This document shows, piece by piece, positions 4,158 through 26,813 of a stretch of 64,000 bases of DNA (position 1 is its first letter; each line of letters starts with the position of its first letter). The notes beneath the pieces were generated by a model. It did no database searches. It was not told the origin of the DNA and was given only the letters and a program-made list of their open reading frames with translations. Where the stretch lies: NCBI GenBank assembly GCA_944382965.1, contig CALWOA010000005.1, positions 53,491-117,490 on the forward strand, written 5' to 3'. The DNA is from an uncultured Oscillospiraceae bacterium (GTDB lineage: Bacteria; Bacillota; Clostridia; Oscillospirales; Oscillospiraceae). A program made the position numbers and the translations under genes.

Positions 4158-4169
4158 ACTACTGGAAAG

Positions 4170-5563: not shown

Positions 5564-5585
5564 TGGCATACTCGTTCTTTTCCCT

Positions 5586-5623: not shown

Positions 5624-5659
5624 TTATTTTACACCTCCTCCTTTATGATACAGGGGATG

Positions 5660-6679: not shown

Positions 6680-6706
6680 GATACCTGCCTCCTTTTGTAA
6701 AGATAA

Positions 6707-6720
6707 TTTAATCGCTTAAA
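6707..6720. promoter_or_regulatory. LacI-type operator, copy 1
   Basis: TTTAATCGCTTAAA is a 14-base near-palindrome with a central CG, the usual LacI-family form. It is the exact reverse complement of the copy at 6840-6853. It lies about 10-24 bases after the predicted start of lacI-type mRNA, a roadblock position. Confidence 0.75.
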
Positions 6721-6736
6721 CTGATTTTCTGTGTTT

Positions 6737-6765
6737 ATGATACTGTTTTGCGCTTAGTTTGTCAA
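6737..6765 (-). promoter_or_regulatory. promoter of the LacI-type regulator gene
   Basis: Read leftward: TTGACA, 17 bases, TATCAT. Spacing and boxes are near consensus for the housekeeping sigma factor. The transcript would start near 6730. Confidence 0.75.
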
Positions 6766-6795
6766 TAGGTTTTTGTCATATTGTTAAAAAATATG

Positions 6796-6823
6796 TTGAC
6801 AAGGAGTTTAATTTTGTTATACT
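6796..6823 (+). promoter_or_regulatory. promoter of the rightward glycosidase operon
   Basis: TTGACA, 16 bases, TATACT. The transcript would start near 6830, ten bases before operator copy 2. The promoter position excludes upstream in-frame start codons for the first gene and supports the ATG at 6876. Confidence 0.78.
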
Positions 6824-6839
6824 TGAATCAAGGATATGG

Positions 6840-6853
6840 TTTAAGCGATTAAA
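6840..6853. promoter_or_regulatory. LacI-type operator, copy 2
   Basis: TTTAAGCGATTAAA, reverse complement of copy 1, sits immediately downstream of the rightward promoter. The two copies are 133 bases apart and placed symmetrically, which would allow one dimer-of-dimers or two dimers to block both promoters. Confidence 0.75.
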
Positions 6854-6875
6854 TTCTAAACGAAGGGGTGCTTCT

Positions 6876-13039: not shown

Positions 13040-13170
13040 TTAAATCCCTCACATTTAATTTAAGAAACTAGCTTCAAATAGATCATCGTAATTGTATGAT
13101 GCCGTCTATTTTTAATAGAATTTACCCTTTTGGTTAGTGTGTGCATCACCTAAATCTGCATTCTTAGCTA

Positions 13171-13320
13171 TTATTGCTCTACCTTTTCCTTTAGACATTC
13201 TTTCAGCTATTCACGCAGAAGGGCAGAATCTGTCATGTTTTTTCCAGGGTAATCTGTTTGACCGCTTTGTGTTTTATCCTTGTCATTGATTTCCTGATTT
13301 ACTACGTTTCTTTCTGCCAT
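13171..13320 (-). pseudogene. small hydrophilic open frame interrupted by an amber codon
   Basis: Read leftward from ATG at 13320 with AAAGG upstream: MAERNVVNQEINDKDKTQSG and 17 more residues to TAG, then 11 further in-frame residues (LKECLKEKVEQ) before TAA. It resembles small charged proteins of mobile elements, but I do not recognise a family. The short distance between the two stops suggests a decayed 49-residue protein. Confidence 0.35.
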
Positions 13321-13399
13321 AATTATTGACCTTTCATGTACATGTTATTGTGTACTTGTGTAATAGCGTCAAGCGTTATACACAAAATGCTTTGGTCAT

Positions 13400-14050
13400 G
13401 GCAGAAATTTATTGTAGCGGGCGGCTTACTGCCCCTTGGTTTCCTTCCTGAGGCAGGTTGAAAGTATCAAGGGCTGCGGTACACCGCCCGTCTGGCCCTG
13501 TGTGTTTGTGCTTTTCTGCAAGTAAAATTGTTTCTTTTCATAATAGTAGGCTACTTTTGGCGATTTTAAGATTTTTTAGCAATACCGGCAGTGGATATTT
13601 CGTGTTTAGGGTAACAGCAGTCACTGTTTTCTCGCCGTTGCTAACGGAGGTTTGCTGATGCCTAGGCTTTTTTAGCAAATCAATTGTTTGCTTGAGAATA
13701 TCGATTTCCAGCTGCATATGTTGGATTTTGCTTTTATTTCATCGAGCTCCTATGAAGATGCAGCTTTTCCTTCTGTCAGTTTTCCGCTGCCTCGCTCTTT
13801 GGATGGATTTATTCACGCTACAGCACCTTGCTGGAAATATTTACGCCGCCTGGCATAGATACTCGCCGTGCTATATCCAACTTCATTCGATACTGATTAT
13901 ACATCTTCTTCTACCTTAAAGCAACGATTAAGTATCAGAAATTTTTGTTCTAGTGAGGGATGCCGGAGATGATCCTCTGCGTTATATCCCCGAAAGTCAG
14001 ACCTTCCCTTCGGCAAAATTCTCTTCCAATGGATCAGTTATACAGAGCGT
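13400..14050 (-). pseudogene. degenerate IS3-family transposase (orfA plus start of orfB)
   Basis: Read leftward, fragments in several frames line up with an IS3-type element. They are SLEQKFLILNRCF, an ochre stop, VGYSTASIYARRRKYF (the orfA helix-turn-helix), MQLEIDILKQTIDLLKKP (end of orfA) and KYPLPVLLKNLKIAKSSLLL (start of orfB). The catalytic DDE region is missing. Terminal repeats are not obvious. It marks an old insertion in this scar. Confidence 0.65.
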
Positions 14051-14610
14051 GCCTGCGTGCTGGATGCACTAAAATCTACTGATTTTGGTTCCCCATAAAC
14101 CTCGAGAGCTTTTCAATATTGCTCCTCTGAATGTATCTGTCTATCTCCTTTTTAAGTGTATTCCGCCCAACTTTTTATCCGCGCTCCTGTCACTTGATGC
14201 TTGGATTTGTCGTAATTTTTCTAAAAGGGAAACAGTTTGCACCACGAAAATTTGATGGGTGACATACTTATGAAAGACGACATCCGCAATCTTACTGAAG
14301 GACCATTGGAAAAGCATTACAGGAAATTATAGCTTTGCTCAACTTAACGGTATCAATAGCTGTTTGGGGCCAGAGATAAGAGTAAAAGTAAGAATTTATA
14401 CGTATTTCGGTTTTGTATCGATTCAACAATAAAATTGGTTGTAATATCATATTTCATTATAACGCTTACATTTACGGTTGGATCCCTTAGAATCTTTTTT
14501 CAAAGAGTCAAGATAGGATAATACAAGCTCTACGGAAAGTTAGAATATGTTAAAATAAACAAATTTCATGCGCATAAACTTATAAATATAACAAAAATGA
14601 CAATAACACC
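14051..14610. other. AT-rich intergenic region without a recognisable gene
   Basis: About 560 bases between the transposase remnant and the promoter of the FadR-type regulator. Only short frames occur. The last 150 bases are very AT-rich, as expected upstream of a strong promoter. Confidence 0.5.
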
Positions 14611-14639
14611 TTGACAATAATATGGAGGTGCTTTATACT
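14611..14639 (+). promoter_or_regulatory. promoter of the FadR-type regulator gene
   Basis: TTGACA, 17 bases, TATACT: a full consensus promoter. The predicted start near 14646 falls inside the operator candidate at 14644-14661. Confidence 0.8.
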
Positions 14640-14643
14640 TTGA

Positions 14644-14661
14644 AACGTAGGATGTGTGATG
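14644..14661 (+). promoter_or_regulatory. candidate FadR-type operator, copy 1
   Basis: AACGTAGGATGTGTGATG shares 13 of 18 positions with the copy at 15453-15470 (common core AACGTAGGA, then GT, then ATG). It covers the predicted transcription start, so autoregulation is inferred. Confidence 0.5.
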
Positions 14662-14682
14662 TTAAAGGGGAGATTGAAGACA

Positions 14683-15402
14683 ATGGCGATTACAACGGAG
14701 CGAATGCAACCCGCTAGCAATGGTACAGTTGTGGACAACATAATATGTCAAATTCGCAATGCGATTTCTTCAGGCCGTTTTCGCAGCGGAGATCGGTTGC
14801 CTAGCGAATTTGAACTGATGGAAGAACTGAATGTGAGTCGCAATTCCCTGCGCGAGGCTATGAAAATTCTTTCGGCCATAGGTATTGTGGAAATTCGACG
14901 TGGAGATGGCACCTATATTTGCAACCAGGTAAAGTATAGCTTTATTGATAGTGTTGCTTACAGTGTGTTGTTGGAAAATAGTACTTCTGAAGAACTGATT
15001 GAATTCCGCAGAACGTTAGATGAAGATGTTTTAATGTTGGCGGTCAAAAAGGCAACAAAGGAAGATGTGGAGAATCTTCAGGAGATTATTAACGAAATGC
15101 GTTTGAAATTTTCCAATGGAGAAATCGGTGCAGCTGCAAAGCTGGACTATCGTTTCCATCAGTACTTAGCCAGCTGTACAAAGAATAATTTCATGGAACG
15201 AATGGTGCTGGGAGTATATGCGCTTTTTGAACGTTCCATTGAAAAGAATATACGGACAGAAGAGCTGTTCGCAATGGCGGATCAGCACCATCAAGATATG
15301 CTGAATTGTATCCAGGAACGGGATACCAGCAAAGTTCCGGATGTGATTGCGAGAAGTTTGTCCTCTTGGTGTAAGGATGTAAAAGCAAAAATTGCAGATT
15401 GA
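14683..15402 (+). CDS. GntR-family regulator, FadR/FCD subfamily
   Basis: A 239-residue regulator. The N-terminal winged helix (about residues 10-80) contains RLPSEFELMEELNVSRNSLREAMKIL and the wing GIVEIRRGDGTYI. The C-terminal FCD effector domain includes the metal-type residues of EFRRTLDEDVLMLA and DYRFHQYLA. FCD regulators commonly sense small acids such as hydroxy or keto acids. The start at 14683 is preferred over an in-frame GTG at 14656 because AAAGGGGAG lies 10 bases before it and the GTG is only about 10 bases from the mRNA start. It heads the Liv/transketolase operon and probably controls it. Confidence 0.9.
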   Translation: MAITTERMQPASNGTVVDNIICQIRNAISSGRFRSGDRLPSEFELMEELNVSRNSLREAMKILSAIGIVEIRRGDGTYICNQVKYSFIDSVAYSVLLENSTSEELIEFRRTLDEDVLMLAVKKATKEDVENLQEIINEMRLKFSNGEIGAAAKLDYRFHQYLASCTKNNFMERMVLGVYALFERSIEKNIRTEELFAMADQHHQDMLNCIQERDTSKVPDVIARSLSSWCKDVKAKIAD

Positions 15403-15452
15403 AAGATTGGAATTTTGTCTCTGTGAGATAGGCAACATTCCTTTCGCCATAA

Positions 15453-15470
15453 AACGTAGGACGTCCTATG
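15453..15470 (+). promoter_or_regulatory. candidate FadR-type operator, copy 2
   Basis: AACGTAGGACGTCCTATG contains the perfect 12-base palindrome TAGGACGTCCTA (15457-15468). It lies 200 bases before the first enzyme gene of the operon. The resemblance to 14644-14661 suggests that the regulator binds both. A promoter for the operon is likely here, but its boxes are weak. Confidence 0.55.
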
Positions 15471-15671
15471 AAAAGTATGATTCAATATTTTTGCTACTTG
15501 ACGCAATAGAAAATAGGCGAAATAGGATATCCGGATACAGCATCCAAAGTATTGGCAATTTCACAATTCATTTGCCGCAGAAGATTTTCTTAGGTGTCAT
15601 TCGGGCTCTTAATAGCCTGGATATAAAATCTACCCGTTAAATACAGTTTTTGCTTTAATAAGGAGAAAGAA

Positions 15672-16961
15672 ATGAGTAAAACCAAATATGAAATTCAGGG
15701 CCAAGATTTTTTGATTAATGGTAAGCTGACCTACACGGAGATTCCAAACAGCAATCCTGCCTGTCACGGGCTGCTGTTCAATGCGCGTTTTATCCAGGGA
15801 TTGTTTCAGGATGTTAACCCTGACAACTGGTCTCATTACCAGCGATTCGGCAAAAGCTTTGACCCAGAGAGAAATACCGATGAACTGGTTGCAGCGCTTC
15901 CGCAATGGTATGATGCCGGCCTGCGGGCTATTACGGTAGGTTTGATGGGTGGCGGCCCTTGCATGAGCTATAAAGACTGGGGAACGTTAAAGTTTGGAAG
16001 TTTTTCCCAAGATGGGAAGATGATGGACCCAGGCGTTCGGGCGAGATTGGAAAGAGTGCTTAAAGCGGCCGATGAGCTGGGAATGCTTGTCATTGTCAGT
16101 TTCCTCTACCATGGTCAATTCCGGTATTTTGACGGAGACGAGGCTATTGAAGAGGTTTGTAAGACATCTGTAAAAACATTGTGTGAGTTGGATTACGACA
16201 ACGTCATTATTGAAGTGGCCAACGAGTATGACGTAATTGAGCAAATGGTTCCTACATCCCAGATAGGAACGCCGGAAAAAATGGCGGAGCTGATCAATCT
16301 GTGTCGGGAATGGTGTGCGGGAAGATTTGCTGTAGGAGCTAGTACTACTTTCGTTGATGAACGGCAAGAACTGGTGATGAAAGCAAGTGATATTTGCCTG
16401 TTCCATGGTAATGACAAACGTCGTCAGGAGCTTCATAACAAGTATACGCTGATTCGCAAATGGTGTCCGGGTAAACCCATTGTGGTAAATGAAGACTCTG
16501 CAATCTTTACCCACATTGATGTTGCTGTAGAAGACCATTTCTCCTGGGGTTATTACAATAACTGGACCAAGCAGGAACCCCCTTGTGATTGGGGAATTGG
16601 TCATAGTGAGGACATGCGCTTTGCGGCCAAGGTATGTGATGTCGTTGGTATCCCTGTGCAGCATGAAAATGGCGATCCGGAGTTATTGGGATTTGAGCCG
16701 CACAATTGTTTGCCAAATGGAGAACGGTTTATCCGTGTAACAACAGCCAGACCGGACAAAATTCAAAAAGTTGTGTTTTACGAGGATGGCATGAAGCTGG
16801 ATGCTGCTTTTGCGGAGCCATTTTATCTCTATCCTTTGTCCACATGGCATCAGGCAGCCTACTGCCGGAAGCCGGGGGCCAAAGTATTTTGCGCAGAAGT
16901 CTTTTTCTATGATGGGCAAGTGCTTCGCCTGGAACAGCATTTGGATGAGCTGACAGACTAA
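15672..16961 (+). CDS. clan GH-A-like glycoside hydrolase (TIM barrel), cytoplasmic
   Basis: A 429-residue protein without signal peptide. The first 330 residues fit a (beta/alpha)8 barrel of clan GH-A. The stretch VIIEVANEYD ends strand 4 with the acid/base Asn-Glu pair, and KPIVVNEDSA carries the nucleophile-type Glu on strand 7. A small C-terminal beta domain follows. The usual GH family is not obvious; GH5-like or a related uncharacterised group is most likely. AAGGAG precedes the ATG. As first gene of a Liv-type import operon, it may release an acid-containing aglycone or sugar from an imported glycoside. That role is inference. Confidence 0.65.
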   Translation: MSKTKYEIQGQDFLINGKLTYTEIPNSNPACHGLLFNARFIQGLFQDVNPDNWSHYQRFGKSFDPERNTDELVAALPQWYDAGLRAITVGLMGGGPCMSYKDWGTLKFGSFSQDGKMMDPGVRARLERVLKAADELGMLVIVSFLYHGQFRYFDGDEAIEEVCKTSVKTLCELDYDNVIIEVANEYDVIEQMVPTSQIGTPEKMAELINLCREWCAGRFAVGASTTFVDERQELVMKASDICLFHGNDKRRQELHNKYTLIRKWCPGKPIVVNEDSAIFTHIDVAVEDHFSWGYYNNWTKQEPPCDWGIGHSEDMRFAAKVCDVVGIPVQHENGDPELLGFEPHNCLPNGERFIRVTTARPDKIQKVVFYEDGMKLDAAFAEPFYLYPLSTWHQAAYCRKPGAKVFCAEVFFYDGQVLRLEQHLDELTD

Positions 16962-17021
16962 GTTTTTTACAACGGGTGGGTATCTGTTGTGAAATAGAAT
17001 AATAAAAAAGGAGTAAAGATT

Positions 17022-18254
17022 ATGAAAAAGAATGTACGCATGGTATTGTCTCTGTTGGTAGCCGCTGTGCTCATCCTCGGCCTGGTGGGGTGTGGTACAT
17101 CTGAGCCTACTGCTTCCACTGCTTCTGCTCCGGCTACTGAATCTGGCTCTGAAAACGCTTTGGAGCCCTATGTCATTGGTGCATATATGCCTATCACCGG
17201 TACGAACTCTACCTGGTCCTTCATCTTAGAGAGAGGCCAGGATCTGGCTATCGAAGAAATCAATGCCAATGGCGGCTTCAACGGACACCCTGTTGAGATT
17301 ATCCGTTATGACACCACTTCTTCCAACGAGGAAGCCGCAAAGATCGCTGTTCGCCTGGTGGAAGTTGACAAAGTAGATGCTTGTCTACCCTCTCCTATGT
17401 CTAACGAAATCAAGGCATCTGCCAACACGCTGAATAATGCACACATTCCCACGATTGTTGTGGGCACCTCCGCGACTCTGCTGAGTGATGCAAACTGGGA
17501 CTATGTTTGGAGAACTGCTCTGAATACGGATTTTACAATGTCTGCTTGGGAGAGTGCTTTTGATGAGATGGGCGTCAAGACTGTTGCAATCATTAATTCC
17601 CAGGAAGATGTATGTGTTGCCGTAACACAGGCCATGGAAGAACTGTGTGCCGAAAAGGGTATTGAAATTGTTGCCAAAGAATCTATTGATAGCGCCGATA
17701 CCGATTTTACAGCACCTCTTGCCAACATTGTCTCTGCAAAACCTGACTTGGTATGCAGCTATGCTTTGGAGCCGGGTAATGTTACTGTTCAGCTCAGACG
17801 GCTGGGTTATGATGGCCTGATCATTCAAAGAGAACTGCCTGCTGCCAATGACTTTGAAATTGCTGGTGATGATTCTCGCGGCTGGGCATTCCCCTCTCTG
17901 TACGTGACTTATACCGACATTAACGACTGTGATATTCCGTATATGCGCAGCTTCCTAGAGAAGTATCAGGCTGCTTATGGCGAACTGCCCGAGTACGAGT
18001 GGGTATACCGTGGATATGATGCAGTTATGGCGCTGTGGGAGGCATCCAAGATTGCCGGTTCCAATGACAAGGAAGCAATCAACGAGGCTCTGAGCCAGGT
18101 TGTGTGCGATGGTCTGGGTGGAACAATTGACTTTACCAAGTCTCACGAGGGCTATGAGTCTTTCGGTTCCTTCGTTTACGAAGATGGAAAGTTTAAGGAA
18201 TTCAACACTTGGCTGTCCGCCGGCGGATATGATGCCTATAAGCAGAACGACTAA
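17022..18254 (+). CDS. Liv-type ABC substrate-binding lipoprotein
   Basis: A 410-residue binding protein of the Peripla_BP_6 (LivJ/LivK) type. The signal peptide ends in the lipobox VGC near residue 25, and a Ser/Thr/Ala-rich linker follows. The mature start YVIGAYMPITGTNSTWSF is the usual first strand and ligand loop of this family, and the signature GHPVEIIRYDTTSSNEEAAK is also present. Family ligands include branched-chain amino acids, urea, amides and aromatic or hydroxy acids, so the name Liv describes architecture only. It is followed by both permeases and both ATPases. Confidence 0.9.
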   Translation: MKKNVRMVLSLLVAAVLILGLVGCGTSEPTASTASAPATESGSENALEPYVIGAYMPITGTNSTWSFILERGQDLAIEEINANGGFNGHPVEIIRYDTTSSNEEAAKIAVRLVEVDKVDACLPSPMSNEIKASANTLNNAHIPTIVVGTSATLLSDANWDYVWRTALNTDFTMSAWESAFDEMGVKTVAIINSQEDVCVAVTQAMEELCAEKGIEIVAKESIDSADTDFTAPLANIVSAKPDLVCSYALEPGNVTVQLRRLGYDGLIIQRELPAANDFEIAGDDSRGWAFPSLYVTYTDINDCDIPYMRSFLEKYQAAYGELPEYEWVYRGYDAVMALWEASKIAGSNDKEAINEALSQVVCDGLGGTIDFTKSHEGYESFGSFVYEDGKFKEFNTWLSAGGYDAYKQND

Positions 18255-18368
18255 ACGGTTAGTCTAATTTACAATTGTCAATTTACAGCTCGTTACAGAA
18301 AAACGCCTTGCCTTCTAGAATGCATTGACGGTAAATTGATGAAAAGTTTGTTTCGCAATATCCGAATG

Positions 18369-18397
18369 GATCCCCTCCCTGTGTAAGGGAGGTGATC
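18369..18397 (+). promoter_or_regulatory. hairpin that buries an extended Shine-Dalgarno sequence
   Basis: A 12-base stem with one mismatch and a GTGTA loop. Its 3' arm contains GGAGGTGATC (18388-18397), a ten-base complement of the usual 16S rRNA 3' end. The next credible start (ATG 18416) is 23 bases after GGAGG and has its own AAGAGG. Control of permease translation or mRNA processing is inferred. Confidence 0.5.
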
Positions 18398-18415
18398 ATA
18401 GGAAAAGAGGTTTAC

Positions 18416-19297
18416 ATGCTGAAATTTGTTACATTATTTATATCTGCAACCATTCTAGGATGTACATATGGCCTGATTTCTCTTAGTTACAGCTTGATCT
18501 ACAAGTCTTCCGGAATGATGGCATTTGTGAATCCTGACCTGATGACCTGGGGCGCTTTTCTGGGGTTTACCTTTTATACACTTATGGGGCTGCCTTACCC
18601 CATCGCAGTACTGTTGACCTGTGTGGTTATGTTCTGCATGGGTTTTGCGATTCAGAAGGGTGTTGTCCGGAATCTGATTAAACGCAATGTCACACCCATG
18701 TATATAACCCTGACTATGTTTGCAATGGGATATATACTGCAAAATCTTAGTCAGTTGATATTTGGCAGTGTTCCACGGAAATTCGATTCTATTATACCGG
18801 GGCTGAAGATTCAGCTTGCTGGAATTCAGGTGCAGCCGGAAGCAATTATTTGTGTAGGCGTGTCTCTGTTAATTATGGCGTTACTGCAGTTCTTTATGAA
18901 CAAGACAAAACTGGGAACCGCTATGCGTGCAGCATCCATGGATCCCATGGCTGCTGAATCAGTAGGCGTAGATGTATCGTTGATTTCTGGCCTTTCTTGG
19001 GGGCTATCCACCACTGTCATTGCAGCAGCTGGTATTCTGTGTGGCCCGATTTACTCTGTCAGTATGGTATTGGGTGCGAACCTCGGCGCAAAGGCGTTTG
19101 CTGGCGCCGTTTTGGGTGGTTACGGAAATATGATCGGCGCTATCATCGGCGGATTGGCAATGGGCTTTATTGAAACCTTTGTCAGTGGGTATATTTCTTC
19201 GGACTACAAAAGTTTGATTGCTTATATCGTTCTGATCCTGTTCTTGTTCGTTAAACCGACAGGTATTATGAACGAGCGGGCGATTCAGGATGTTTAA
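18416..19297 (+). CDS. Liv-type ABC permease, LivH family
   Basis: A 293-residue inner-membrane permease with about eight hydrophobic segments. It has the family pattern GLISLSYSLIYKSSGMMAFVNP near the N-terminus and the coupling region TAMRAASMDPMAAESVGVDV. It ends VKPTGIMNERAIQDV, like other LivH proteins. The ATG at 18416 is chosen over an in-frame GTG at 18392, because that GTG lies inside the Shine-Dalgarno hairpin. It is separated from the binding-protein gene by 160 bases with a strong hairpin. Confidence 0.9.
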   Translation: MLKFVTLFISATILGCTYGLISLSYSLIYKSSGMMAFVNPDLMTWGAFLGFTFYTLMGLPYPIAVLLTCVVMFCMGFAIQKGVVRNLIKRNVTPMYITLTMFAMGYILQNLSQLIFGSVPRKFDSIIPGLKIQLAGIQVQPEAIICVGVSLLIMALLQFFMNKTKLGTAMRAASMDPMAAESVGVDVSLISGLSWGLSTTVIAAAGILCGPIYSVSMVLGANLGAKAFAGAVLGGYGNMIGAIIGGLAMGFIETFVSGYISSDYKSLIAYIVLILFLFVKPTGIMNERAIQDV

Positions 19298-19314
19298 TAG
19301 AAAGGAGATATCAT

Positions 19315-20301
19315 ATGCTTCAGCGGAAAAAGAATTATCTCCTACCAGCAGCTGGTGCAACTGTTCTTGTTTTGGCATTCCCTTTTTTAGCCAATGCTTT
19401 TGGGTATACATATGCAATTACCCTGGCTTGCTACGTTCAACTTTATTTCATTGCAGTTTCCGGCTATGATGTCTTGTTTGGCTACTGTGGACAGATCAAT
19501 ATGGGACTTGCTGGCTTTTATGCAATTGGTGCTTATGGTTCTGCGATTCTGAATGAGTACTGCAATATTCCGATTATCCTTTCGATGATAATTGCTTCTG
19601 TGGCATCCTGTGTGGTTGGCGCTATTTTGGCTTACCCCTGTGGTAAACTCCAGTTCCATTTCCTTACTCTGGCTACAATTGCTTTTGGCAATATCATTAA
19701 CCAGATCCTTTCTCATTCCCCTGGCGGAATTACCGGCAATTTCAACGGCATGTATACACAGCGCCCTTCGTTGTTCGGATTTGACATGACATCCACAACT
19801 TCCTACTATTTCTTTGGACTGGTTTGTGTAATCATCTTTGCAGTAATTAAGTATCATGTCGTCCATTCTAAACTGGGCCGTGCTTTCTCTGCAATTCGTG
19901 ATAACGTGAAAGCGGCCGACGGCATGGGAATCAATGTCCGTCTGTACAAAGTAATTGCATTTGCAATCTGTGCATTGTTCACCGGATTTGCCGGTAGCAT
20001 GTATGCACATCTGGTGGGATTTATCAGCCCGGATACATTTACCCAGAAACAGTCCGTATTGTTCCTTACCATGCTTATTTTTGGCGGTACAACCAGTTTT
20101 GGCGGATCGCTGATCGGTGTTGTCGCTTTGATGTTGGTTACAGAATCTATTCGTACGCTGACCGGATACCAGACATTGATTTACGGTGTCATCATTATTT
20201 TGGTCGTTATTCTGCTGCCCAAAGGTGTATTTGGCGAGCTGATTGGGCTGAAGAACCGATTCGCGAAGAAAAATAGAAAGCACAGTGGAGAGGTGGTATA
20301 G
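19315..20301 (+). CDS. Liv-type ABC permease, LivM family
   Basis: A 328-residue permease, partner of the LivH-like protein. The typical SGYDVLFGYCGQINMGLAGF region and the coupling loop AFSAIRDNVKAADGMGINV are clear. It ends with a basic cytoplasmic tail. AAAGGAG precedes the ATG, and only 2 bases separate it from the ATPase gene. Confidence 0.92.
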   Translation: MLQRKKNYLLPAAGATVLVLAFPFLANAFGYTYAITLACYVQLYFIAVSGYDVLFGYCGQINMGLAGFYAIGAYGSAILNEYCNIPIILSMIIASVASCVVGAILAYPCGKLQFHFLTLATIAFGNIINQILSHSPGGITGNFNGMYTQRPSLFGFDMTSTTSYYFFGLVCVIIFAVIKYHVVHSKLGRAFSAIRDNVKAADGMGINVRLYKVIAFAICALFTGFAGSMYAHLVGFISPDTFTQKQSVLFLTMLIFGGTTSFGGSLIGVVALMLVTESIRTLTGYQTLIYGVIIILVVILLPKGVFGELIGLKNRFAKKNRKHSGEVV

Positions 20302-20303
20302 AT

Positions 20304-21065
20304 ATGGCATTGCTGGAAGCGAATAATATCACCATTCGATTCGGCGGCATTACGGCAGTAAATAATGCTAGCCTTAAGGTTGAAAAAGGTTCCATCACGA
20401 GCCTGATTGGACCAAATGGTGCAGGTAAAACCACCATGTTCAACTGTATTTCCGGTGTCTATACGCCAAATGAAGGTGAAATCCTCTTCAATGGAAAGCG
20501 CATTGATGGTAAACGGTGCTTCCAAATTTGTGCAGGTGGTATTTCCCGTACATACCAGATTATCAATCTGTTTTGGAAAATGACAGCCCTGGAAAATGTT
20601 ATGGTTGGATTTCACCCTCGAATCAAGAGCAGTATTCTGCACTCCCTGCTGGGAACACGCAAGCAGGTCCAGGAGGAAATCGAACTGAGGCAGCGGGCTA
20701 TGGAATATCTGAAGTTTGTGGGAATCGAAGATACCTGGAACATGATTTCCAAGAATCTGTCCTATGGCCAGCAGCGTCTTCTGGAAATTGCCCGGGGACT
20801 GGCGTCTGAGCCGGAAATTATCCTGCTGGATGAGCCTGTGGCCGGCATGAATACAGCTGAAAAAGCTGAGTTCAACAAACTGCTTCGCAGAATTGTGGAC
20901 AAAGGTGTTACGGTGCTGATGATTGAACACGATATGAACGTGATTATGGGCGTTTCGGACTATGTCTACGTTCTGGAAAATGGCGTAATGATCGCCAATG
21001 GTAAGCCAGAAGATGTTCAGAAGGATCCTGCCGTTATCAAAGCTTATCTGGGAGGTGACGAATAA
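20304..21065 (+). CDS. Liv-type ABC ATPase, LivG family
   Basis: A 253-residue ATP-binding subunit. Walker A is GPNGAGKTT near residues 35-43, the signature is LSYGQQRLLEIARGL, and Walker B is EIILLDEPVAGM. The C-terminal helical extension is typical of LivG. Signature position two is Tyr, as is common in LivG proteins. Its stop overlaps the LivF-like start (TAATG). Confidence 0.92.
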   Translation: MALLEANNITIRFGGITAVNNASLKVEKGSITSLIGPNGAGKTTMFNCISGVYTPNEGEILFNGKRIDGKRCFQICAGGISRTYQIINLFWKMTALENVMVGFHPRIKSSILHSLLGTRKQVQEEIELRQRAMEYLKFVGIEDTWNMISKNLSYGQQRLLEIARGLASEPEIILLDEPVAGMNTAEKAEFNKLLRRIVDKGVTVLMIEHDMNVIMGVSDYVYVLENGVMIANGKPEDVQKDPAVIKAYLGGDE

Positions 21066-21787
21066 TGTCTGCAATGCTAGAACTTGAAGATTTCCGGTAT
21101 AGCTATGGCGGCGTACATGCTGTAAAAGGCATTAGTCTGCAAATTAATGAAGGTGAAATTGTAACACTGATTGGAGCCAACGGTGCAGGAAAATCTACCA
21201 CCATGCGTACCATCTGCGGTCTTACCGAGCCTCAAGGTGTGCAGGGAAAGATAGTCTACAAAGGGAAAGAAATCCAAAAACTGAGTGGACATAAGATTAC
21301 AGCTATGGGGCTTTCCCACGTAATCGAAGGCCGTCACATTTTCAGTAAGCTCACGGTGGATGAGAATCTGGAGATGGGCGCCTATCTTCGGAAAGACACC
21401 AAAAATATTAAAGCCGATAAAGAGGAAATGTACCGCTTATTTCCTAGATTGCTGGAGAGAAAAACTTCATTGGGCAGCAACCTGTCCGGCGGTGAGCAGC
21501 AGATGCTGGCTATTGCACGGGCAATGATGAATCATCCGAAAATGATTTTGTTGGATGAGCCGTCACTGGGACTTGCACCGATTATTGTGACAGAAGTATT
21601 TAAGGCAATTAAACGCCTGAATGAGCAAGAAGGCATTACGATTTTCTTTGTGGAACAAAACTCGAAGATTGCTCTCAATTCCGCACAGAGAGGTTATGTT
21701 ATGCAGACAGGTGAAATCGTAATTAGTGGCAGTTGCACTGATTTGAGCAATAATGAAGCTGTCCGCAAGGCGTATTTGGGAGAATGA
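21065..21787 (+). CDS. Liv-type ABC ATPase, LivF family
   Basis: A 240-residue ATP-binding subunit. Walker A is GANGAGKSTT, the signature is LSGGEQQMLAIARAM, and Walker B is MILLDEPSLGLAP, the characteristic LivF form. It completes a five-gene importer and is coupled to the LivG-like gene through a TAATG overlap. About 160 bases without a terminator separate it from the racemase homologue. Confidence 0.93.
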   Translation: MSAMLELEDFRYSYGGVHAVKGISLQINEGEIVTLIGANGAGKSTTMRTICGLTEPQGVQGKIVYKGKEIQKLSGHKITAMGLSHVIEGRHIFSKLTVDENLEMGAYLRKDTKNIKADKEEMYRLFPRLLERKTSLGSNLSGGEQQMLAIARAMMNHPKMILLDEPSLGLAPIIVTEVFKAIKRLNEQEGITIFFVEQNSKIALNSAQRGYVMQTGEIVISGSCTDLSNNEAVRKAYLGE

Positions 21788-21948
21788 GTTAACGTTGTAA
21801 GAACCAATATGCCTGATAGGGCAGCATGAAAAATAATATCTTACCCTAGCCGGCTGAGGAGAATAGTCCTATTTTAGATATCTGTGCAGTGTCCATACAA
21901 AAAACAGGGAAGATCAACCGCAGCAGGTGTAATTTTGGAGGAAGAATT

Positions 21949-22614
21949 ATGGTAAAGACTTTGTATACCATTAATACAATCAACAATTTTATGGATATCA
22001 TTTATAATCCCTTTGGCAAGCCCTTTGCGCAGGCAAATCCTGATATCCAAGTGTACAATATCATGGATGACAGTTTGCTGCTGGATACCAGAAAATACGG
22101 GGGGATGACGCCCACCATCGCAAGCCGCATGCTGAATTATGCAAAGGCAGCGGAAAATTCTGGTGCGGATGGTGTGATTGTAACTTGTACGTCTGTAAAT
22201 CATGCAACCAAAATGATTCGCCCGCTGCTAAATATCCCGGTGATTAACATTGAGGAGCCCGTGGCGGAAATGGCAGCTGCCAGTGGTAAGCGGATTGGGG
22301 TTTTGGGTACCATTCCCACCAGCCCGGGTGCGATTTCCTGGGAGATTGAGGAAAGTGCCGCTAGGCTAGGTAAGGAAATTGAGATTGTCCCTGTTGTGGT
22401 GGATGGTGCCTTTGATGTTCTGCAATCCGGTGATAGAGACAAGCATGACGAAATGGTTTGTGAAGCGCTTTACAAGCTGGCGAAGGAAGTGGACTGTGTT
22501 GTATTTGCCCAGATCTCCATGAGCCTGTTGAAGCACGAAGCCGTAGAGGTACCTGTGCTGAAAATCGGAACATCGGGATTCGAAAAGATCAAAGCATTGA
22601 TGGAGCAGCACTAA
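21949..22614 (+). CDS. Asp/Glu/hydantoin racemase superfamily protein with a single active-site cysteine
   Basis: A 221-residue protein of the two-domain Asp/Glu racemase fold. The first catalytic position is present in VTCTSVNHA (Cys near 66). At the second position, where racemases have GCTH or a similar Cys motif, this protein reads VFAQISMS, with no Cys. Single-Cys members include arylmalonate decarboxylase, and relatives with an FAQ-type motif are annotated only loosely. ATG 21949 is chosen because GGAGGAAG precedes it. Its place between the importer and the transketolase suggests a racemisation or decarboxylation step on an imported acid, which is inference. Confidence 0.75.
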   Translation: MVKTLYTINTINNFMDIIYNPFGKPFAQANPDIQVYNIMDDSLLLDTRKYGGMTPTIASRMLNYAKAAENSGADGVIVTCTSVNHATKMIRPLLNIPVINIEEPVAEMAAASGKRIGVLGTIPTSPGAISWEIEESAARLGKEIEIVPVVVDGAFDVLQSGDRDKHDEMVCEALYKLAKEVDCVVFAQISMSLLKHEAVEVPVLKIGTSGFEKIKALMEQH

Positions 22615-22627
22615 GGAGGAAATACCT

Positions 22628-23461
22628 ATGGCTGAAGCGGAAAAAGTAATGCGTCTGAAGGAGCAGGCAAAGGTTGTCCGCAAGGAGATCCTGACCATGA
22701 TTCACGAAGCAAAGTCTGGCCATCCAGGCGGCTCTCTGTCTGCTGCTGATATGATGACTGCGCTGTATTTTGACGAATTGAATATTGATCCGGAAAATCC
22801 AAAGTGGGAAGACCGAGACCGTTTCGTTTTGTCTAAGGGACACGTTTGCCCTGTATTGTATACCTGCTTGGCGCTGCGGGGCTATTTCCCCAAGGAGGTA
22901 TTGGGCACTCTGCGGAAAGAAGGATCCATTTTGCAGGGGCATCCTGATATGAAGCGGTGTCCTGGCGTGGACATTTCCACTGGTTCCCTGGGACAGGGAT
23001 TGAGTGTTGCCGTGGGGATGGCCTTGAGTGCAAAGCGTGATCACAAGAGCTATCGCGTATTTTGCATGGTGGGCGATGGCGAAAGCAATGAAGGACAAAT
23101 TTGGGAAGCCGTTCAGACGGCGGCAAAGTATAACCTGGACAATCTAGTGATTCTACTGGATCGGAACCGTTTGCAGAACGACGGTATCTGTGAAGAGGTT
23201 ATGCCCAATGGCAATCTGGTAGACAAGTTTACCACCTTTGGCTGTCAATCCTGGGAAATCGACGGCCATGATATGGCGCAGATTCTGGACACCCTGGAGG
23301 CCATTAAAGCAGATCAATCCGGTAAGCCTAAGTGTATCGTAGCACATACAGTGAAAGGAAAAGGCGTTTCCTTTATGGAGAATGTTGTGCAGTGGCATGG
23401 CATGGCCCCCAATGACGAGCAGTATGCAATTGCGATGCAGAACATTGAGGAGGGATTTTGA
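22628..23461 (+). CDS. transketolase, N-terminal (thiamine-diphosphate-binding) subunit
   Basis: A 277-residue subunit matching the N-terminal half of transketolase. The substrate-binding start SGHPGGSLSAADMM and the thiamine diphosphate/metal motif GDGESNEGQIWEA are clear. Alone it is inactive; the active site forms with the C-terminal subunit encoded next, with a TGATG overlap. AAGGAGG precedes the start. Split transketolases in catabolic operons often serve a special ketol transfer rather than the pentose phosphate cycle. Confidence 0.93.
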   Translation: MAEAEKVMRLKEQAKVVRKEILTMIHEAKSGHPGGSLSAADMMTALYFDELNIDPENPKWEDRDRFVLSKGHVCPVLYTCLALRGYFPKEVLGTLRKEGSILQGHPDMKRCPGVDISTGSLGQGLSVAVGMALSAKRDHKSYRVFCMVGDGESNEGQIWEAVQTAAKYNLDNLVILLDRNRLQNDGICEEVMPNGNLVDKFTTFGCQSWEIDGHDMAQILDTLEAIKADQSGKPKCIVAHTVKGKGVSFMENVVQWHGMAPNDEQYAIAMQNIEEGF

Positions 23462-24402
23462 TGGTGACGATTAAGAGTACCAGACATCCGACCCGTGATG
23501 CCTACGGCGAAGAGATTTTGGCCTTGGGCAAGGAAAATAAAAATATTTATGTCGTAGACTGTGATATTGGAAAATCCTGCAAAACCATTCCCTTCGCAAA
23601 AGAATTACCACAGCAGCATGTGAATGTGGGAATTGCAGAGCAAAATGCCTGCGGTGTGGCAGCCGGTCTTGCAACTTGCGGGAAAATACCCTTTGTAACG
23701 ACCTATGCTGTATTTGGAAGTATGCGTATGTCGGAGCAGATCCGCCAGGAAGTCTGTTACCCGAAGCTAAACGTGAAGATTGCTTGCTCTCATGGTGGCC
23801 TTACCCCTGCCAACGATGGCGCAAGTCATCAGGGAATTGAGGATATGGGTATCCTGCGTACCATTCCGAATATGACAGTGATTATGGGCTGTGACTATGC
23901 TTCCACCAAGAAATTGATTCGTGCAGCAGCTGAGTATTACGGGCCTGTTTATCTGCGTTTTACTCGTGACGCAGTACCGGATATTTATGATGAAGATGAA
24001 GAGTTTGTAATCGGAAAAGCCAAGGAACTGCGCAGTGGAAAGGATGTGGCCATAATTGCCAATGGTGAGATTATGTCGTTGGCATTGATGGCTGCCGATC
24101 AGCTGGAGCAGGAAGGAATTCATGCAACTGTGTTGGATATGCACACCATTAAACCCTTGGACAATGCAGCAGTTGAAAAAGTACTGAAAGAATGCAAGGG
24201 TGTTGTTACGGTAGAAGACCACAACATTATTAACGGCCTGGGAAGTGCTGTCTGCGAAGTTGCAGCGGAACTGGGCATCGGTAAAGTTAAACGTATTGGC
24301 ATTCGTGACAACTTTGGTGAATCAGCACCTTATGAGCGGCTGCTGGAAAAGAATGGTATTACCATTGAAGCGATTGTTGAAGCCTGTAAGTCCATGATGT
24401 AA
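23461..24402 (+). CDS. transketolase, C-terminal (pyrimidine-binding) subunit
   Basis: A 313-residue partner of the preceding subunit. It contains the pyrimidine-binding domain with the catalytic-type Glu in HVNVGIAEQNACGVAAGL and the C-terminal transketolase domain. The ATG at 23461 shares its A with the TGA stop of the upstream gene, so the two subunits should be made in equal amounts. It is part of the FadR-controlled operon. Confidence 0.93.
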   Translation: MVTIKSTRHPTRDAYGEEILALGKENKNIYVVDCDIGKSCKTIPFAKELPQQHVNVGIAEQNACGVAAGLATCGKIPFVTTYAVFGSMRMSEQIRQEVCYPKLNVKIACSHGGLTPANDGASHQGIEDMGILRTIPNMTVIMGCDYASTKKLIRAAAEYYGPVYLRFTRDAVPDIYDEDEEFVIGKAKELRSGKDVAIIANGEIMSLALMAADQLEQEGIHATVLDMHTIKPLDNAAVEKVLKECKGVVTVEDHNIINGLGSAVCEVAAELGIGKVKRIGIRDNFGESAPYERLLEKNGITIEAIVEACKSMM

Positions 24403-24447
24403 CAAATTTGAGGGTGCGCCCTCTACTCCAACATGAGGTAATTCGTT

Positions 24448-25413
24448 ATGAAAATTGTTGTTTTGGATGGTTACACTGAAAATCCTGGGGATTTAAGTTG
24501 GGATGAACTGAAAAAACTGGGTGAAGTTACTGTTTATGACAGAACTTCCTATGTTGAGGATCCAATTATTGCGCAACGGATTGGGGATGCGGAAATTGTC
24601 ATTACAAACAAAACCCCGATCTCTCGGGAAACAATTGATCAATGCCCCAATCTGAAATTGATTGCATTTCTAGCCACTGGCTACAATGTAGCTGACTATA
24701 CTTATGCAAAAGAAAAGGGCATTCCTGTTGTCAATGTACCCACTTATGGCACCCAAATTGTTGGGCAATACGCAGTGGGCTTATTGATGGAAATCTGCTC
24801 CCATTATGGTCATCATGATCAAACAGTCAAGGAAGGCAAATGGGAAAAGAACGAAGATTGGTGCTATTGGGATTATCCCATGATCGAACTTTATGGAAAA
24901 ACTGCTGGTATTATTGGCCTTGGGCGTATTGGTCAAGCCACTGCCAAGATTTTGAATGCGCTTGATATGAAGGTATTGGCATTCGATACATTTGAGAGCG
25001 AAGCTGGGAAAAAATTGGCCCAATATGTGAATCTGGATACCTTGCTGGCTGAGTCGGATGTAATTTTCCTGCATTGTCCCTTGTTCCCTGCTACAGAAGG
25101 CATTATCAACAAGGATAACATTGCTAAGATGAAAGATGGTGTCATCATCATCAATAATAGTCGTGGACAATTGGTGGTTGAACAGGATTTGGCAGATGCC
25201 CTTAACAGCGGAAAAGTTTATGCAGCTGGTTTGGATGTGGTATCTACCGAGCCAATCAGAGGAGATAATCCTCTGCTGAAGGCCAAGAATTGCTTGATTA
25301 CACCCCACATTTCTTGGGCTGCACAAGCATCTCGTCAGCGAATTATGGATATTACCGTTGCAAATGTCAAATCCTTCCTGGATGGGAATCCAGTCAATGT
25401 TGTAAATAAATAA
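24448..25413 (+). CDS. D-2-hydroxyacid dehydrogenase, hydroxypyruvate-reductase/glycerate-dehydrogenase type
   Basis: A 321-residue NAD(P)-dependent dehydrogenase. The Rossmann motif is GLGRIGQATAKIL. The catalytic Arg lies in NNSRGQLV, the Glu in STEPI and the His in ITPHISWA. The DYPMIELYGKT segment before the Rossmann fold resembles glycerate dehydrogenases. The usual SRGP is SRGQ here, a small oddity. It ends the operon. Reduction of hydroxypyruvate, which is also a transketolase donor, would tie it to the two previous genes. Confidence 0.88.
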   Translation: MKIVVLDGYTENPGDLSWDELKKLGEVTVYDRTSYVEDPIIAQRIGDAEIVITNKTPISRETIDQCPNLKLIAFLATGYNVADYTYAKEKGIPVVNVPTYGTQIVGQYAVGLLMEICSHYGHHDQTVKEGKWEKNEDWCYWDYPMIELYGKTAGIIGLGRIGQATAKILNALDMKVLAFDTFESEAGKKLAQYVNLDTLLAESDVIFLHCPLFPATEGIINKDNIAKMKDGVIIINNSRGQLVVEQDLADALNSGKVYAAGLDVVSTEPIRGDNPLLKAKNCLITPHISWAAQASRQRIMDITVANVKSFLDGNPVNVVNK

Positions 25414-25462
25414 AATATGTATTGCTGGCTACTCCCGCTATATCAGGAGATGGGCCATCATC

Positions 25463-25499
25463 AGCAGCCTGCCGACATGTGTGCCGACAGGCTGCTTTT
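25463..25499 (+). terminator. terminator of the Liv/transketolase operon
   Basis: A stem AGCAGCCTG with its complement CAGGCTGCT and a 16-base loop, ending TTTT, 50 bases after the dehydrogenase stop. Confidence 0.75.
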
Positions 25500-25730
25500 C
25501 GTCTGCCAGTTCAGCCGGAGGCCGAACTGGCGTTGCAGGTGGCAGCGCCCTATTGCCGACTCAGTTCTGACTTAGAAGATCAGCTGAATAGTTTTGCTGC
25601 CAAAACCACCCACTACCATAATCACCCCGGGAATTCCACTGGGAATCTGGACTTTCTCAACGGGCAGGGAAGATTGTGTAAACAGAACATTTCCCCACAA
25701 CAAGAACAAATGGATATTCAGATGTAATGA

Positions 25731-25770
25731 GGCGGTTATGGAATCCAGAAGGAAACCATAGCCGCCCTTA
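25731..25770 (+). terminator. second hairpin before the ECF operon, weak terminator
   Basis: Arms GGCGGTTATGG and CCATAGCCGCC (one G-T wobble) with a 14-base loop. The following CTTATGTGTTTT is a poor T-run. The 230 bases between the two hairpins contain no credible gene. Confidence 0.4.
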
Positions 25771-25882
25771 TGTGTTTTCTGTTAACTGTTTCAAAGAGAG
25801 CTGTGGCCTAGGCTGGCGGAGATACTGCCATATCAATAGGAATCTCTATGGCCGGAAAGTAAAAGAAAATTTAATTACATTT

Positions 25883-25924
25883 TACCGATGCAAGTAAGAA
25901 GAACTTACATGATATCGGTATACT
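25883..25924 (+). promoter_or_regulatory. inverted repeat overlapping a TATACT box before the ECF operon
   Basis: Arms TACCGAT and ATCGGTA with an inner GTAAG/CTTAC pair form a nested dyad at 25883-25920. Its right arm runs into TATACT at 25919-25924, a possible -10 box without a clear -35. This fits a repressor site, perhaps for the RpiR protein at the end of the operon. Confidence 0.4.
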
Positions 25925-25970
25925 GTGGTTGTGTGAAGAAACCAGAGGACACAAATAGGAGGATTTCCAT

Positions 25971-26810
25971 ATGAATGCAATGCAAAAAAACACCATCACA
26001 CAATCCCAGAAACTGATGATTTTTGTTCTGACCATGTCCTTGTATGGTCTGGCAACCCTGTTTACCGAGCTGATCCCCAAATTCCAGGTGGGATTGGTAG
26101 AGTTCTCGATAGAGTACTTTCTGTTTATCCCGTTGACTTTGGGTATGCTGTTTGATCCTTTGTCTGCCGCACTGGGCGCCGCTACCGGCGAACTGGTATT
26201 CAGTGAAATCATGCTGGGTCAGTTTGGCGGCCTGGGTGAACTGGAGAAGTTCCTGACCGTCACCATCGGCGTATATATCGCCGGCCGTTTGGTGAAGGAC
26301 CCCAAAAACCGGGTTATGGTTGGCATTGCCGCCATTACCGGAACGGCTGCGCAGCTGCTGATGGGCACAATTGTAGATATTGCCAAGGTGCAGTTTGCTG
26401 TGGAGGACTTCGAGGCGGTAGCGGGCCTGCCTGAGAGCGTCTTTGCTACCGAAGGTTTTGCCTTCCTCAATGACCTGCTCTTCTCCGGAATTTTCTTCTG
26501 TCTGCTGCCGACGCTCTACCTGGTACCCAAGCTTTATGGCAAAATTGAACCCCTGCTGGGTATGGCGCCCCGTACCGCCCAGAGCGCTGTGGCTGGCCTG
26601 AATCCCAAGTCCGTTGTGCTGTGCCTCATTGGCTTTCTGTGTGCGGTGACTGCCGAGATGGCCGCTACCGCCGGCATGTCCCTGATCGATTGGGAGGCCG
26701 AATGGGCAGAAAGCGGTACCGCAATGGCCATGGGCATGGTTGCTGCCGCTGCTGTAGCCGTAATTGCCATCCTGGTTATCAAGAAAAATGCCGAAAGGAA
26801 AGTAGCGTAA
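25971..26810 (+). CDS. ECF transporter substrate-binding (S) component-like membrane protein
   Basis: A 279-residue membrane protein with about seven hydrophobic segments. It comes first in an operon with a fused ECF ATPase and an EcfT protein, the usual place of the S component that captures the substrate. It is longer than most S components (170-220 residues), with an extra C-terminal pair of hydrophobic segments. Specificity cannot be read. AGGAGG precedes the start. Three bases separate it from the ATPase gene. Confidence 0.72.
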   Translation: MNAMQKNTITQSQKLMIFVLTMSLYGLATLFTELIPKFQVGLVEFSIEYFLFIPLTLGMLFDPLSAALGAATGELVFSEIMLGQFGGLGELEKFLTVTIGVYIAGRLVKDPKNRVMVGIAAITGTAAQLLMGTIVDIAKVQFAVEDFEAVAGLPESVFATEGFAFLNDLLFSGIFFCLLPTLYLVPKLYGKIEPLLGMAPRTAQSAVAGLNPKSVVLCLIGFLCAVTAEMAATAGMSLIDWEAEWAESGTAMAMGMVAAAAVAVIAILVIKKNAERKVA

Positions 26811-26813
26811 AAA

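What the first reader, a model, noticed from the sequence alone, without database searches (positions are those of the whole stretch)
14683..25413. Possible undescribed catabolic system: Liv-type import, GH-A hydrolase, racemase homologue, split transketolase and hydroxypyruvate-type dehydrogenase
I know of no described pathway with this set. One consistent reading is that an acid, or a glycoside carrying one, enters through the Liv-type importer, is released by the hydrolase and converted to a hydroxypyruvate-like 2-keto acid, which then either donates a ketol group to the transketolase or is reduced to glycerate by the dehydrogenase. FCD regulators often sense such acids. The steps are inference from enzyme families only.
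Basis: inference. Interest (0 to 1): 0.7.

Follow-up and report, generated by a model that had tools for sequence, protein, structure and literature searches.

The report
Acid-sugar operon using split transketolase
A bacterium carries a single self-regulated operon that probably imports a small sugar-like acid and uses a two-part transketolase to feed it into central metabolism; the core of this operon recurs in other bacteria.

Summary
The genes are as described: FCD regulator, glycosidase-like protein, Liv-type importer, PF01177 protein, split transketolase (TK), 2-hydroxyacid dehydrogenase. The set only partly holds together elsewhere. PF01177 + tkN + tkC recur in 11 other loci (10 genomes), with the dehydrogenase in 7, a tripartite tricarboxylate transporter in 8 and glycerate kinase in 4; the Liv importer recurs in 0 and the glycosidase in 1. 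A palindromic operator (GTAGGAYGTNYNAY) lies before the regulator and before the transport block; in the window's genome its only two matches are here, and relatives with another transporter have it at the same operon. The 'racemase homologue' is not an ordinary racemase: in 38 of 38 aligned rows, window included, the first catalytic Cys is kept and the second is Gln. Its relatives lie near TK, DUF1537, PdxA-like, BKACE or LarA genes, all acid-sugar or keto-acid chemistry. Best reading: a keto-acid pathway in which TK passes a C2 unit to glyceraldehyde 3-phosphate and the leftover oxo-acid is reduced to glycerate or glycolate, a carboxylate analogue of sulfo-TK. Substrate and step order are inferred.

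The parts
14611..14639 (+). sigma-70-type promoter of the regulator gene (TTGACA-17-TATACT)
   Evidence: 11 of 12 consensus matches; the pattern scan alone is weak evidence (34 sites found, 20.7 expected)
14647..14660 (+). operator copy 1, GTAGGATGTGTGAT, just after the -10 of the regulator promoter
   Evidence: same place in L082 and L040
14683..15402 (+). GntR/FCD regulator (the longer GTG start at 14656 overlaps the operator, so ATG 14683 is preferred)
   Evidence: 78-79% identical to regulators in L082 and L040
15456..15469 (+). operator copy 2, with the perfect palindrome TAGGACGTCCTA, before the glycosidase and transport genes
   Evidence: matching site before tctC in L082 and L040
15672..16961 (+). 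GH clan A-like protein without a signal peptide by eye, putative glycosidase (E185 and E274)
17022..18254 (+). lipoprotein-type solute-binding protein, HAAT/Liv type (Peripla_BP_6)
   Evidence: lipobox-like LGLVGC read by eye
18392..19297 (+). LivH-type permease (ATG at 18416 also possible)
19315..20301 (+). LivM-type permease
20304..21065 (+). LivG-type ATPase
   Evidence: 285 bits, cut-off 362
21065..21787 (+). LivF-type ATPase
   Evidence: Translation, motifs read by eye; not scanned against a library; 48-55% identical to ATPases of Liv-like systems in L124-L127
21949..22614 (+). PF01177 (Asp/Glu racemase superfamily) one-cysteine protein, proposed keto-acid isomerase or lyase; C80, Q188
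   Evidence: ATG seen
22628..23461 (+). split transketolase, N-terminal (ThDP-binding) subunit
23458..24402 (+). split transketolase, C-terminal subunit
24448..25413 (+). D-2-hydroxyacid dehydrogenase, hydroxypyruvate/glyoxylate-reductase-like (R239, E268, H287; their role is recalled)
25463..25499 (+). terminator-like hairpin (9-bp outer stem, 25463-25496) followed by TTT, possible operon end
   Evidence: z -1.35, 16 of 200 shuffles fold as well, so only suggestive; not among the sites

Best explanation
A single FCD-regulated operon imports a small hydroxy- or keto-acid (an acid sugar of four to six carbons) and breaks it down with transketolase. Shown: gene content, operator pattern, recurrence of the core, the one-cysteine PF01177 protein, kept TK phosphate-site residues. 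Inferred: the PF01177 protein shifts the keto group (a 2-oxo/3-oxo acid or aldehydo-acid isomerase, a stand-in for hydroxypyruvate isomerase or 2-oxo-tetronate isomerase); the split TK takes the HOCH2-CO- unit of the keto-acid and passes it to glyceraldehyde 3-phosphate, giving xylulose 5-phosphate; the oxo-acid left over (tartronate semialdehyde/hydroxypyruvate, or glyoxylate) is reduced by the dehydrogenase to D-glycerate (phosphorylated where glycerate kinase is present) or glycolate. In this genome a Liv-type importer takes the place of the tripartite carboxylate transporter of most relatives, and an accessory glycosidase may free the acid from a small glycoside.
For: Core gene trio in 11 other loci, dehydrogenase in 7, Tct genes in 8, glycerate kinase in 4. 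TK within 10 kb in 10 of 24 PF01177 loci, 0.85 expected. Operator pattern at regulator, transport or tkN promoters of window, L040, L082, L084, L089, L094, so close homologues of one regulator probably control Liv here and TctCBA there. PF01177 relatives lie near DUF1537 kinases, PdxA-like genes, class II aldolases, BKACE, LarA, tartronate semialdehyde reductase and IolO-like isomerases. C80 and Q188 in 38 of 38 rows. TK keeps R, S, F, H, R of the phosphate site in 12 of 12 clade rows by alignment. Sulfo-TK (PMC11659671, passages) is a precedent for a split TK cleaving an acid-bearing ketose.
Against: The dehydrogenase is not beside the trio in L040 (G331), L087 and L089, and PF02595 glycerate kinase is not found in the window's genome (two PF13660 class II glycerate kinases are), so no single end product fits all. 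No aldose isomerase, kinase or dehydratase family was found in the operon, so the imported compound must already be nearly a TK donor. TKs beside more distant PF01177 relatives have altered head-group residues (H lost in 5 of 8 other rows), so the systems need not share a substrate. Related PF01177 proteins may differ in chemistry. Nothing was assayed.
Confidence: 0.5

Rival explanations
1. Hydroxypyruvate node: the PF01177 protein is a decarboxylase or lyase that makes hydroxypyruvate from an imported C4 acid; hydroxypyruvate either gives its ketol unit to G3P with loss of CO2 or is reduced to D-glycerate.
For: A one-Cys PF01177 enzyme that decarboxylates is known (AMDase, which keeps the other Cys and also sits near TTT, TRAP and MR/MLE genes: PMC4996985, passages). 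Dehydrogenase followed by glycerate kinase in L082, L083, L084, L092. Hydroxypyruvate is a classical TK donor (recalled).
Against: In several PF01177 neighbourhoods the partner enzymes (DUF1537, BKACE) suit a 3-oxo acid rather than hydroxypyruvate. The retained Cys is at the opposite position from AMDase's.
Confidence: 0.25
2. Biosynthetic use: TK runs in the building direction and the operon makes a chain-extended sugar or keto-acid rather than degrading one.
For: TK is reversible; a glycosidase-like protein is present; other TK-like enzymes serve in biosynthesis (recalled; no call).
Against: Import systems, FCD regulator and, in 4 relatives, glycerate kinase are the neighbours; no transferase (other than TK) or export family appears among the 10 operon proteins scanned.
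Confidence: 0.08
3. An ordinary branched-chain amino acid importer lies by chance beside unrelated metabolic genes.
For: Liv architecture; a Glu aligned with 3td9 in the binding protein is kept (read by eye). One of six binding-protein relatives read (L129) lies beside a peptide-type ABC importer by eye.
Against: Operator copy 2 sits before the glycosidase-Liv block and matches the site before tctC in relatives; no NCBIfam Liv cut-off is reached (no control run, and the models may be tuned to other phyla); the nearest binding proteins in 384 genomes are only 26-33% identical, and five of six neighbourhoods read by eye hold Zn-dependent dehydrogenase-like (L124, L125, L126, L128) or kinase- and isomerase-like genes (L127) (two of the eight places were not fetched).
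Confidence: 0.05
4. A member of the sulfo-TK pathway for sulfoquinovose.
For: Split TK plus isomerase-like protein plus reductase.
Against: TK has R-S-F-H-R, not the reported R-A-F-D-R of sulfofructose TK; the Ser alone is not telling, since the genome's other split TK has Ala there; no GH31 and no sugar-isomerase family among the 10 operon proteins scanned.
Confidence: 0.03

Closest known systems
Sulfo-TK pathway (SqwGH, SqwI, SqwF; Clostridium sp. MSTE9, Faecalicatena)
   Same: A split transketolase, an isomerase and a reductase of the leftover C2 compound in one cluster of anaerobic Firmicutes (PMC11659671 and PMC12890257, passages)
   Different: Carboxylate-type importers in most relatives; PF01177 protein; D-2-hydroxyacid dehydrogenase; TK keeps His at the head-group site; no sulfoquinovose genes recognised. 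The family of SqwI was not established here (paper not held)
DUF1537 four-carbon acid-sugar pathways (LtnD/DenD, OtnI, OtnK, OtnC; DtnK, PdxA2)
   Same: Acid-sugar chemistry; some PF01177 relatives lie near DUF1537 and PdxA-like genes
   Different: No DUF1537 kinase in the window operon; TK in its place; pathway steps recalled; NCBIfam names, where kinase scores are below the curated cut-offs and only one PdxA-like protein of L114 passes one (TIGR00557)
Split transketolase of Carboxydothermus hydrogenoformans (6YAJ/6YAK)
   Same: Closest solved relatives of both subunits (E 1.3e-93 and 4.8e-89)
   Different: Clade signature SHGG(L/F)TP(A/G)NDG instead of THAGLTVGEDG; Asn in 12 of 12 clade rows where 6YAJ has Glu
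Arylmalonate decarboxylase
   Same: PF01177 enzyme with a single catalytic Cys, often near TTT or TRAP genes (PMC4996985, passages)
   Different: AMDase keeps Cys188 and has Gly74; here the first Cys is kept and Gln stands at the second position

Membership tests
PF01177 Asp/Glu racemases | Asp/Glu racemase fold | tested here: met
   Pfam 74.4 bits, cut-off 31; model pLDDT 95.3 matches hydantoin, Asp and Glu racemases
PF01177 Asp/Glu racemases | two catalytic cysteines | tested here: not met
   First Cys in 38 of 38 rows; the position aligned with the second Cys of 1jfl is Gln in 38 of 38
Transketolase (split type) | ThDP-binding subunit plus pyrimidine/C-terminal subunit | tested here: met
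Transketolase (split type) | phosphate-site residues R, S, F, H, R | tested here: met
   12 of 12 clade rows by alignment; motif from PMC11659671 passages, residue matching by alignment and recall
Sulfo-TK pathway | R-A-F-D-R head-group motif in TK | tested here: not met
Sulfo-TK pathway | sulfoquinovosidase (GH31) and SQ isomerase in the cluster | tested here: not met
   No GH31 or sugar-isomerase family among the 10 of 11 operon proteins scanned
Branched-chain amino acid importer (Liv) | HAAT binding protein, two permeases, two ATPases | tested here: met
   LivF by eye
Branched-chain amino acid importer (Liv) | equivalog score of LivH, LivG | tested here: not met
   LivH 96 against 379, LivG 285 against 362; no known Firmicutes Liv system was run as control
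Branched-chain amino acid importer (Liv) | binds Leu, Ile, Val | not testable with these tools
   needs a binding assay
GH clan A hydrolase | (beta/alpha)8 fold with two catalytic Glu | tested here: inconclusive
   Best 50 Foldseek hits, E 1.3e-7 to 6.1e-5, mostly GH5, GH2 and GH140, a few alpha-amylase-type; TM-scores only 0.25-0.37 by query length and pLDDT 56.5; E185 and E274 kept in L092
DUF1537 tetronate pathway | DUF1537 kinase in the operon | tested here: not met
   one DUF1537 gene elsewhere in the genome, contig C27
D-apiose transketolase pathway (AptAB) | apiose isomerase and apulose kinase | not tested
   recalled only; no such family among the proteins scanned

The most novel reading that the evidence does not exclude
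An undescribed transketolase route for carboxylate sugars, the carboxylate counterpart of sulfo-TK, with a new class of one-cysteine PF01177 keto-acid isomerase that stands in for Hyi/OtnI. Sister clusters that add a transaldolase-like gene and an AP_endonuc_2 isomerase would parallel the bifurcated sulfo-TK/sulfo-TAL pathway.
Probability: 0.35. Interest if true: 0.75.

Novelty: new variant of a known kind. Interest (0 to 1): 0.55.

Why it matters
If true, transketolase would be a general device for breaking down acid-tagged sugars (sulfonates already, carboxylates now), a clade of proteins named after Asp/Glu racemases would get a different function, and a small regulon with a predicted operator would make the unknown substrate findable by screening inducers.

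Tried and rejected
Rejected: sulfo-TK membership (head-group motif); two-cysteine racemase; the whole 11-gene set as a conserved unit (Liv 0 of 11, GH-A 1 of 11). Led nowhere: a genome-contig scan with the glycosidase alone (5 stretches matched, none a relative); classing the glycosidase (0 Pfam and NCBIfam families, low-confidence model); Rfam scan of 13000-26500 (0 matches); tRNA scan (0); repeats (nothing telling); paper searches for a described pathway, of which I saw listings only, and only part of them where many papers matched (20 of 681, 15 of 29, 10 of 15, 8 of 16).

Counting notes. The 24 PF01177 loci are those at E <= 1e-15 (8 besides own; 16 besides own and G078, counted once); weaker hits were left out (one search had 45 of 394 genomes at E <= 0.001). 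TK neighbours: 10 of 24, first by hand, then by script from the printed coordinates. P = 2.6e-9 treats loci as independent, which related genomes (G292/G078, G538/G702) are not. Of 19 loci, L100 (23% identity) was left out. L094 is the same genome as G544/L067, so it also counts among the 24; L083 and L084 are one MAG. Rows left out of the 38: L044, L067, L075 (gene split over two frames), L100, L113, L114. The tree has long branches that its output calls unsafe; I draw nothing from it beyond the residue counts. The operator pattern read backwards (control) gave as many genome-wide matches as the true one (2 and 2 in G000, 3 and 3 in G331); what speaks for it is that all 5 true matches lie at these operons. 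Gene calls in relatives come from a simple script (ORFs scored by amino-acid make-up, named by blastp or by family scans); an earlier version chose several antisense ORFs and was replaced. Some names rest on blastp or similarity alone: DUF1537 and aldolase in L071, L073 (and DUF1537 in L069, L079), LarA in L072 and L074, BKACE in L095, L096, L099, and, by eye, Dabb and cut glycerate kinase in L083.


Full report
What is there. The window holds, on the + strand, a GntR/FCD regulator (14683-15402), a 429-residue protein without a signal peptide by eye (15672-16961), a Liv/HAAT importer (17022-21787), a PF01177 protein (21949-22614), the two subunits of a split transketolase (22628-23461, 23458-24402) and a D-2-hydroxyacid dehydrogenase (24448-25413). 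Gaps after the regulator are short apart from 269 bases before the glycosidase gene, 137 before livH and about 160 before the PF01177 gene. A hairpin followed by TTT lies about 50 bases after the last gene; 16 of 200 shuffles fold as well.

The operon seems to have its own operator. A promoter-like TTGACA-17-TATACT precedes the regulator. Right after it lies GTAGGATGTGTGAT, and between regulator and glycosidase gene lies the palindrome-bearing GTAGGACGTCCTAT; the shared pattern GTAGGAYGTNYNAY has 2 matches in 64 kb against 0.00 in 100 shuffles. In the whole assembly (2.63 Mb) these are the only two matches; in G331, a genome of the same family, there are three, all at the homologous operon: before the regulator, before tctC, and before a divergent pair of Dabb and glyoxalase-type genes. 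The reversed pattern, a control, gives the same total numbers (2 and 3), so it is the placement that tells. The pattern also lies before the regulator and tctC in L082, before the regulator in L084, and before tkN in L089 and L094; 107 of the 114 loci then held have none.

What stays together. A scan of named genomes with the PF01177 protein gave 18 relatives of 38-87% identity, plus one doubtful one. TK genes adjoin 10 of the 18. Adding G331 (L040), 11 loci carry PF01177 + tkN + tkC: L040, L082-L087, L089, L090, L092, L094. Among these 11: Tct transporter genes in 8 (only TctA, cut, in L083; TctC in two pieces in L087), dehydrogenase in 7, regulator in 6, glycerate kinase in 4, Dabb in 4, the glycosidase-like gene in 1 (L092, between the PF01177 and dehydrogenase genes), Liv importer in 0. 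Several contigs end inside or near the operon (L083, L086, L090, L092), so some absences are unknown. The hosts are titled Oscillospiraceae, Epulopiscium, Sporomusaceae and other Clostridia; the record titled Calditrichales (L094) has the contig length of G544, which the search tool places in the window's own class.

The PF01177 protein. Its model is confident (pLDDT 95.3) and matches hydantoin, aspartate and glutamate racemases. Over 38 aligned rows, window included, the first catalytic Cys (C80 from the ATG at 21949; shown as 81) is invariant, and the position aligned with the second Cys of 1jfl is an invariant Gln. Arylmalonate decarboxylase is the opposite one-Cys case (PMC4996985, passages). 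So two-base racemisation is unlikely; a one-base isomerisation or a decarboxylation fits. Other PF01177 relatives lie near DUF1537 kinases and class II aldolases (L068, L069, L071, L073, L079), BKACE (L075, L093, L095, L096, L099), LarA (L070, L072, L074), PdxA-like dehydrogenases (L076, L114) and tartronate semialdehyde reductase (L045, L068, above the curated cut-off). Of the 18 named relatives, three (L088, L091, L098) have none of these or TK beside them in the stretch held, and L097 has only BKACE- and transaldolase-like genes some 5 kb away. L114 holds a 65% identical dehydrogenase, a split TK, TctA and TctC, two PdxA-like genes, a DUF1537 kinase and a 30% PF01177 protein in 18 kb.

The transketolase. 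The nearest solved relatives are the two subunits of the Carboxydothermus split TK. The phosphate-site set R, S, F, H, R is kept in 12 of 12 clade rows, whereas sulfofructose TK is reported with R, A, F, D, R (PMC11659671, passages). So the enzyme should use phosphorylated partners such as G3P. Against over-reading this: the genome's other split TK also has Ala at the Ser site, and TKs beside more distant PF01177 relatives have lost the His (Ser in G292, G078, G330; Asn in G760, G538), and two of them the last Arg, so those may take other donors. The clade itself differs from other split TKs by SHGG(L/F)TP(A/G)NDG. The genome's only other PF02779 match is the second split TK on contig C6.

The dehydrogenase scores best against 2-hydroxyacid dehydrogenase, phosphoglycerate dehydrogenase and glyoxylate reductase models but below every cut-off; the one in L067 (= L094) scores 408 of 455 for glyoxylate reductase. 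Glycerate kinase (TIGR00045, over cut-off) follows it in L082, L084 and L092, and by eye its start in L083. The window's genome has no PF02595 match but two PF13660 class II glycerate kinases elsewhere (90.8% complete assembly).

The importer and the glycosidase are the parts peculiar to this genome. The binding protein has a match at E <= 1e-30 in 7 of 384 genomes of the order, its own included; the others are 26-33% identical. Of six of these eight places read by eye, four have a Zn-dependent dehydrogenase-like gene, one kinase- and isomerase-like genes, one a peptide-type importer. The glycosidase-like family is rare: 7 of 394 genomes of the order at E <= 0.001 (one weak, one the window's own) and 5 of 391 of the class at E <= 1e-20, own included. 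Its neighbours elsewhere include AP_endonuc_2 isomerases (L048-L050) and, in L108, a GH88 protein, a sulfatase, a rhamnosidase and a LarA-like gene. Fold matches are mainly GH5, GH2 and GH140, from a low-confidence model.

How it most likely works. Shown: a recurrent operon with an acid-type importer in most relatives, a predicted operator, a one-Cys PF01177 protein, a split TK with the phosphate-site residues and, often, a 2-oxo-acid reductase, in four cases with glycerate kinase. Inferred: an imported acid sugar is brought by the PF01177 protein to a form with a terminal HOCH2-CO- group, or the aldehydo-acid left by TK is turned into its 2-oxo isomer; TK gives the C2 unit to G3P; the remaining oxo-acid is reduced. 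A C5 keto-acid would need exactly TK, isomerase, reductase and glycerate kinase; a C4 one would leave glyoxylate. The data do not choose between these, nor exclude hydroxypyruvate as the TK donor.

Novelty. Subscription papers are mostly not held, so this is not proof. I class it as a new variant of a known kind: acid-sugar catabolism with a split TK, close in logic to sulfo-TK.

Noticed in passing
L078, L080, L113: Clusters with PF01177 protein, AP_endonuc_2 isomerase, split TK, GntR and a transaldolase-like gene (64-70 bits, below cut-offs; TRAP-type DctP in L078): possibly a carboxylate counterpart of the bifurcated sulfo-TK/sulfo-TAL pathway.
   Followed up: partly
L114 (G522, 18 kb): One stretch holds split TK, IolO-like isomerase, 65% identical dehydrogenase, TctA and TctC, two PdxA-like genes, PF01177 protein, DUF1537 kinase and a sigma-54 activator.
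   Followed up: partly
L108 (G523): A relative of the glycosidase-like protein lies beside GH88, sulfatase, alpha-L-rhamnosidase and LarA-like genes, hinting at uronic or sulfated glycans.
   Followed up: partly
TK rows G292, G078, G330, G760, G538 (L045, L046, L047, L078, L080): Split TKs beside distant PF01177 relatives have Ser or Asn in place of the head-group His, which suggests non-phosphate donors.
   Followed up: partly
L091: A 51% PF01177 relative lies beside an MttB-type methyltransferase and an SMP-30-type lactonase-like gene, without TK in the 8 kb held.
   Followed up: no
window 1-10665: A separate sugar locus by eye: LacI-type regulator, ABC sugar importer, GH31-like and GH65-like proteins, HAD phosphatase-like gene.
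   Followed up: no
window 13040-14655: 1.6 kb without any ORF of 100 residues or more just upstream of the operon; the four same-genus genomes sampled have no match to the PF01177 protein, so recent gain of the operon is possible.
   Followed up: no
window 25971-29344: ECF-type transporter genes by eye (S-component-like, double ATPase, T-component-like) follow the operon.
   Followed up: no
G000 whole genome: Only two Transket_pyr matches, both split TKs, in a 90.8% complete assembly; no third, DXS-sized match.
   Followed up: no
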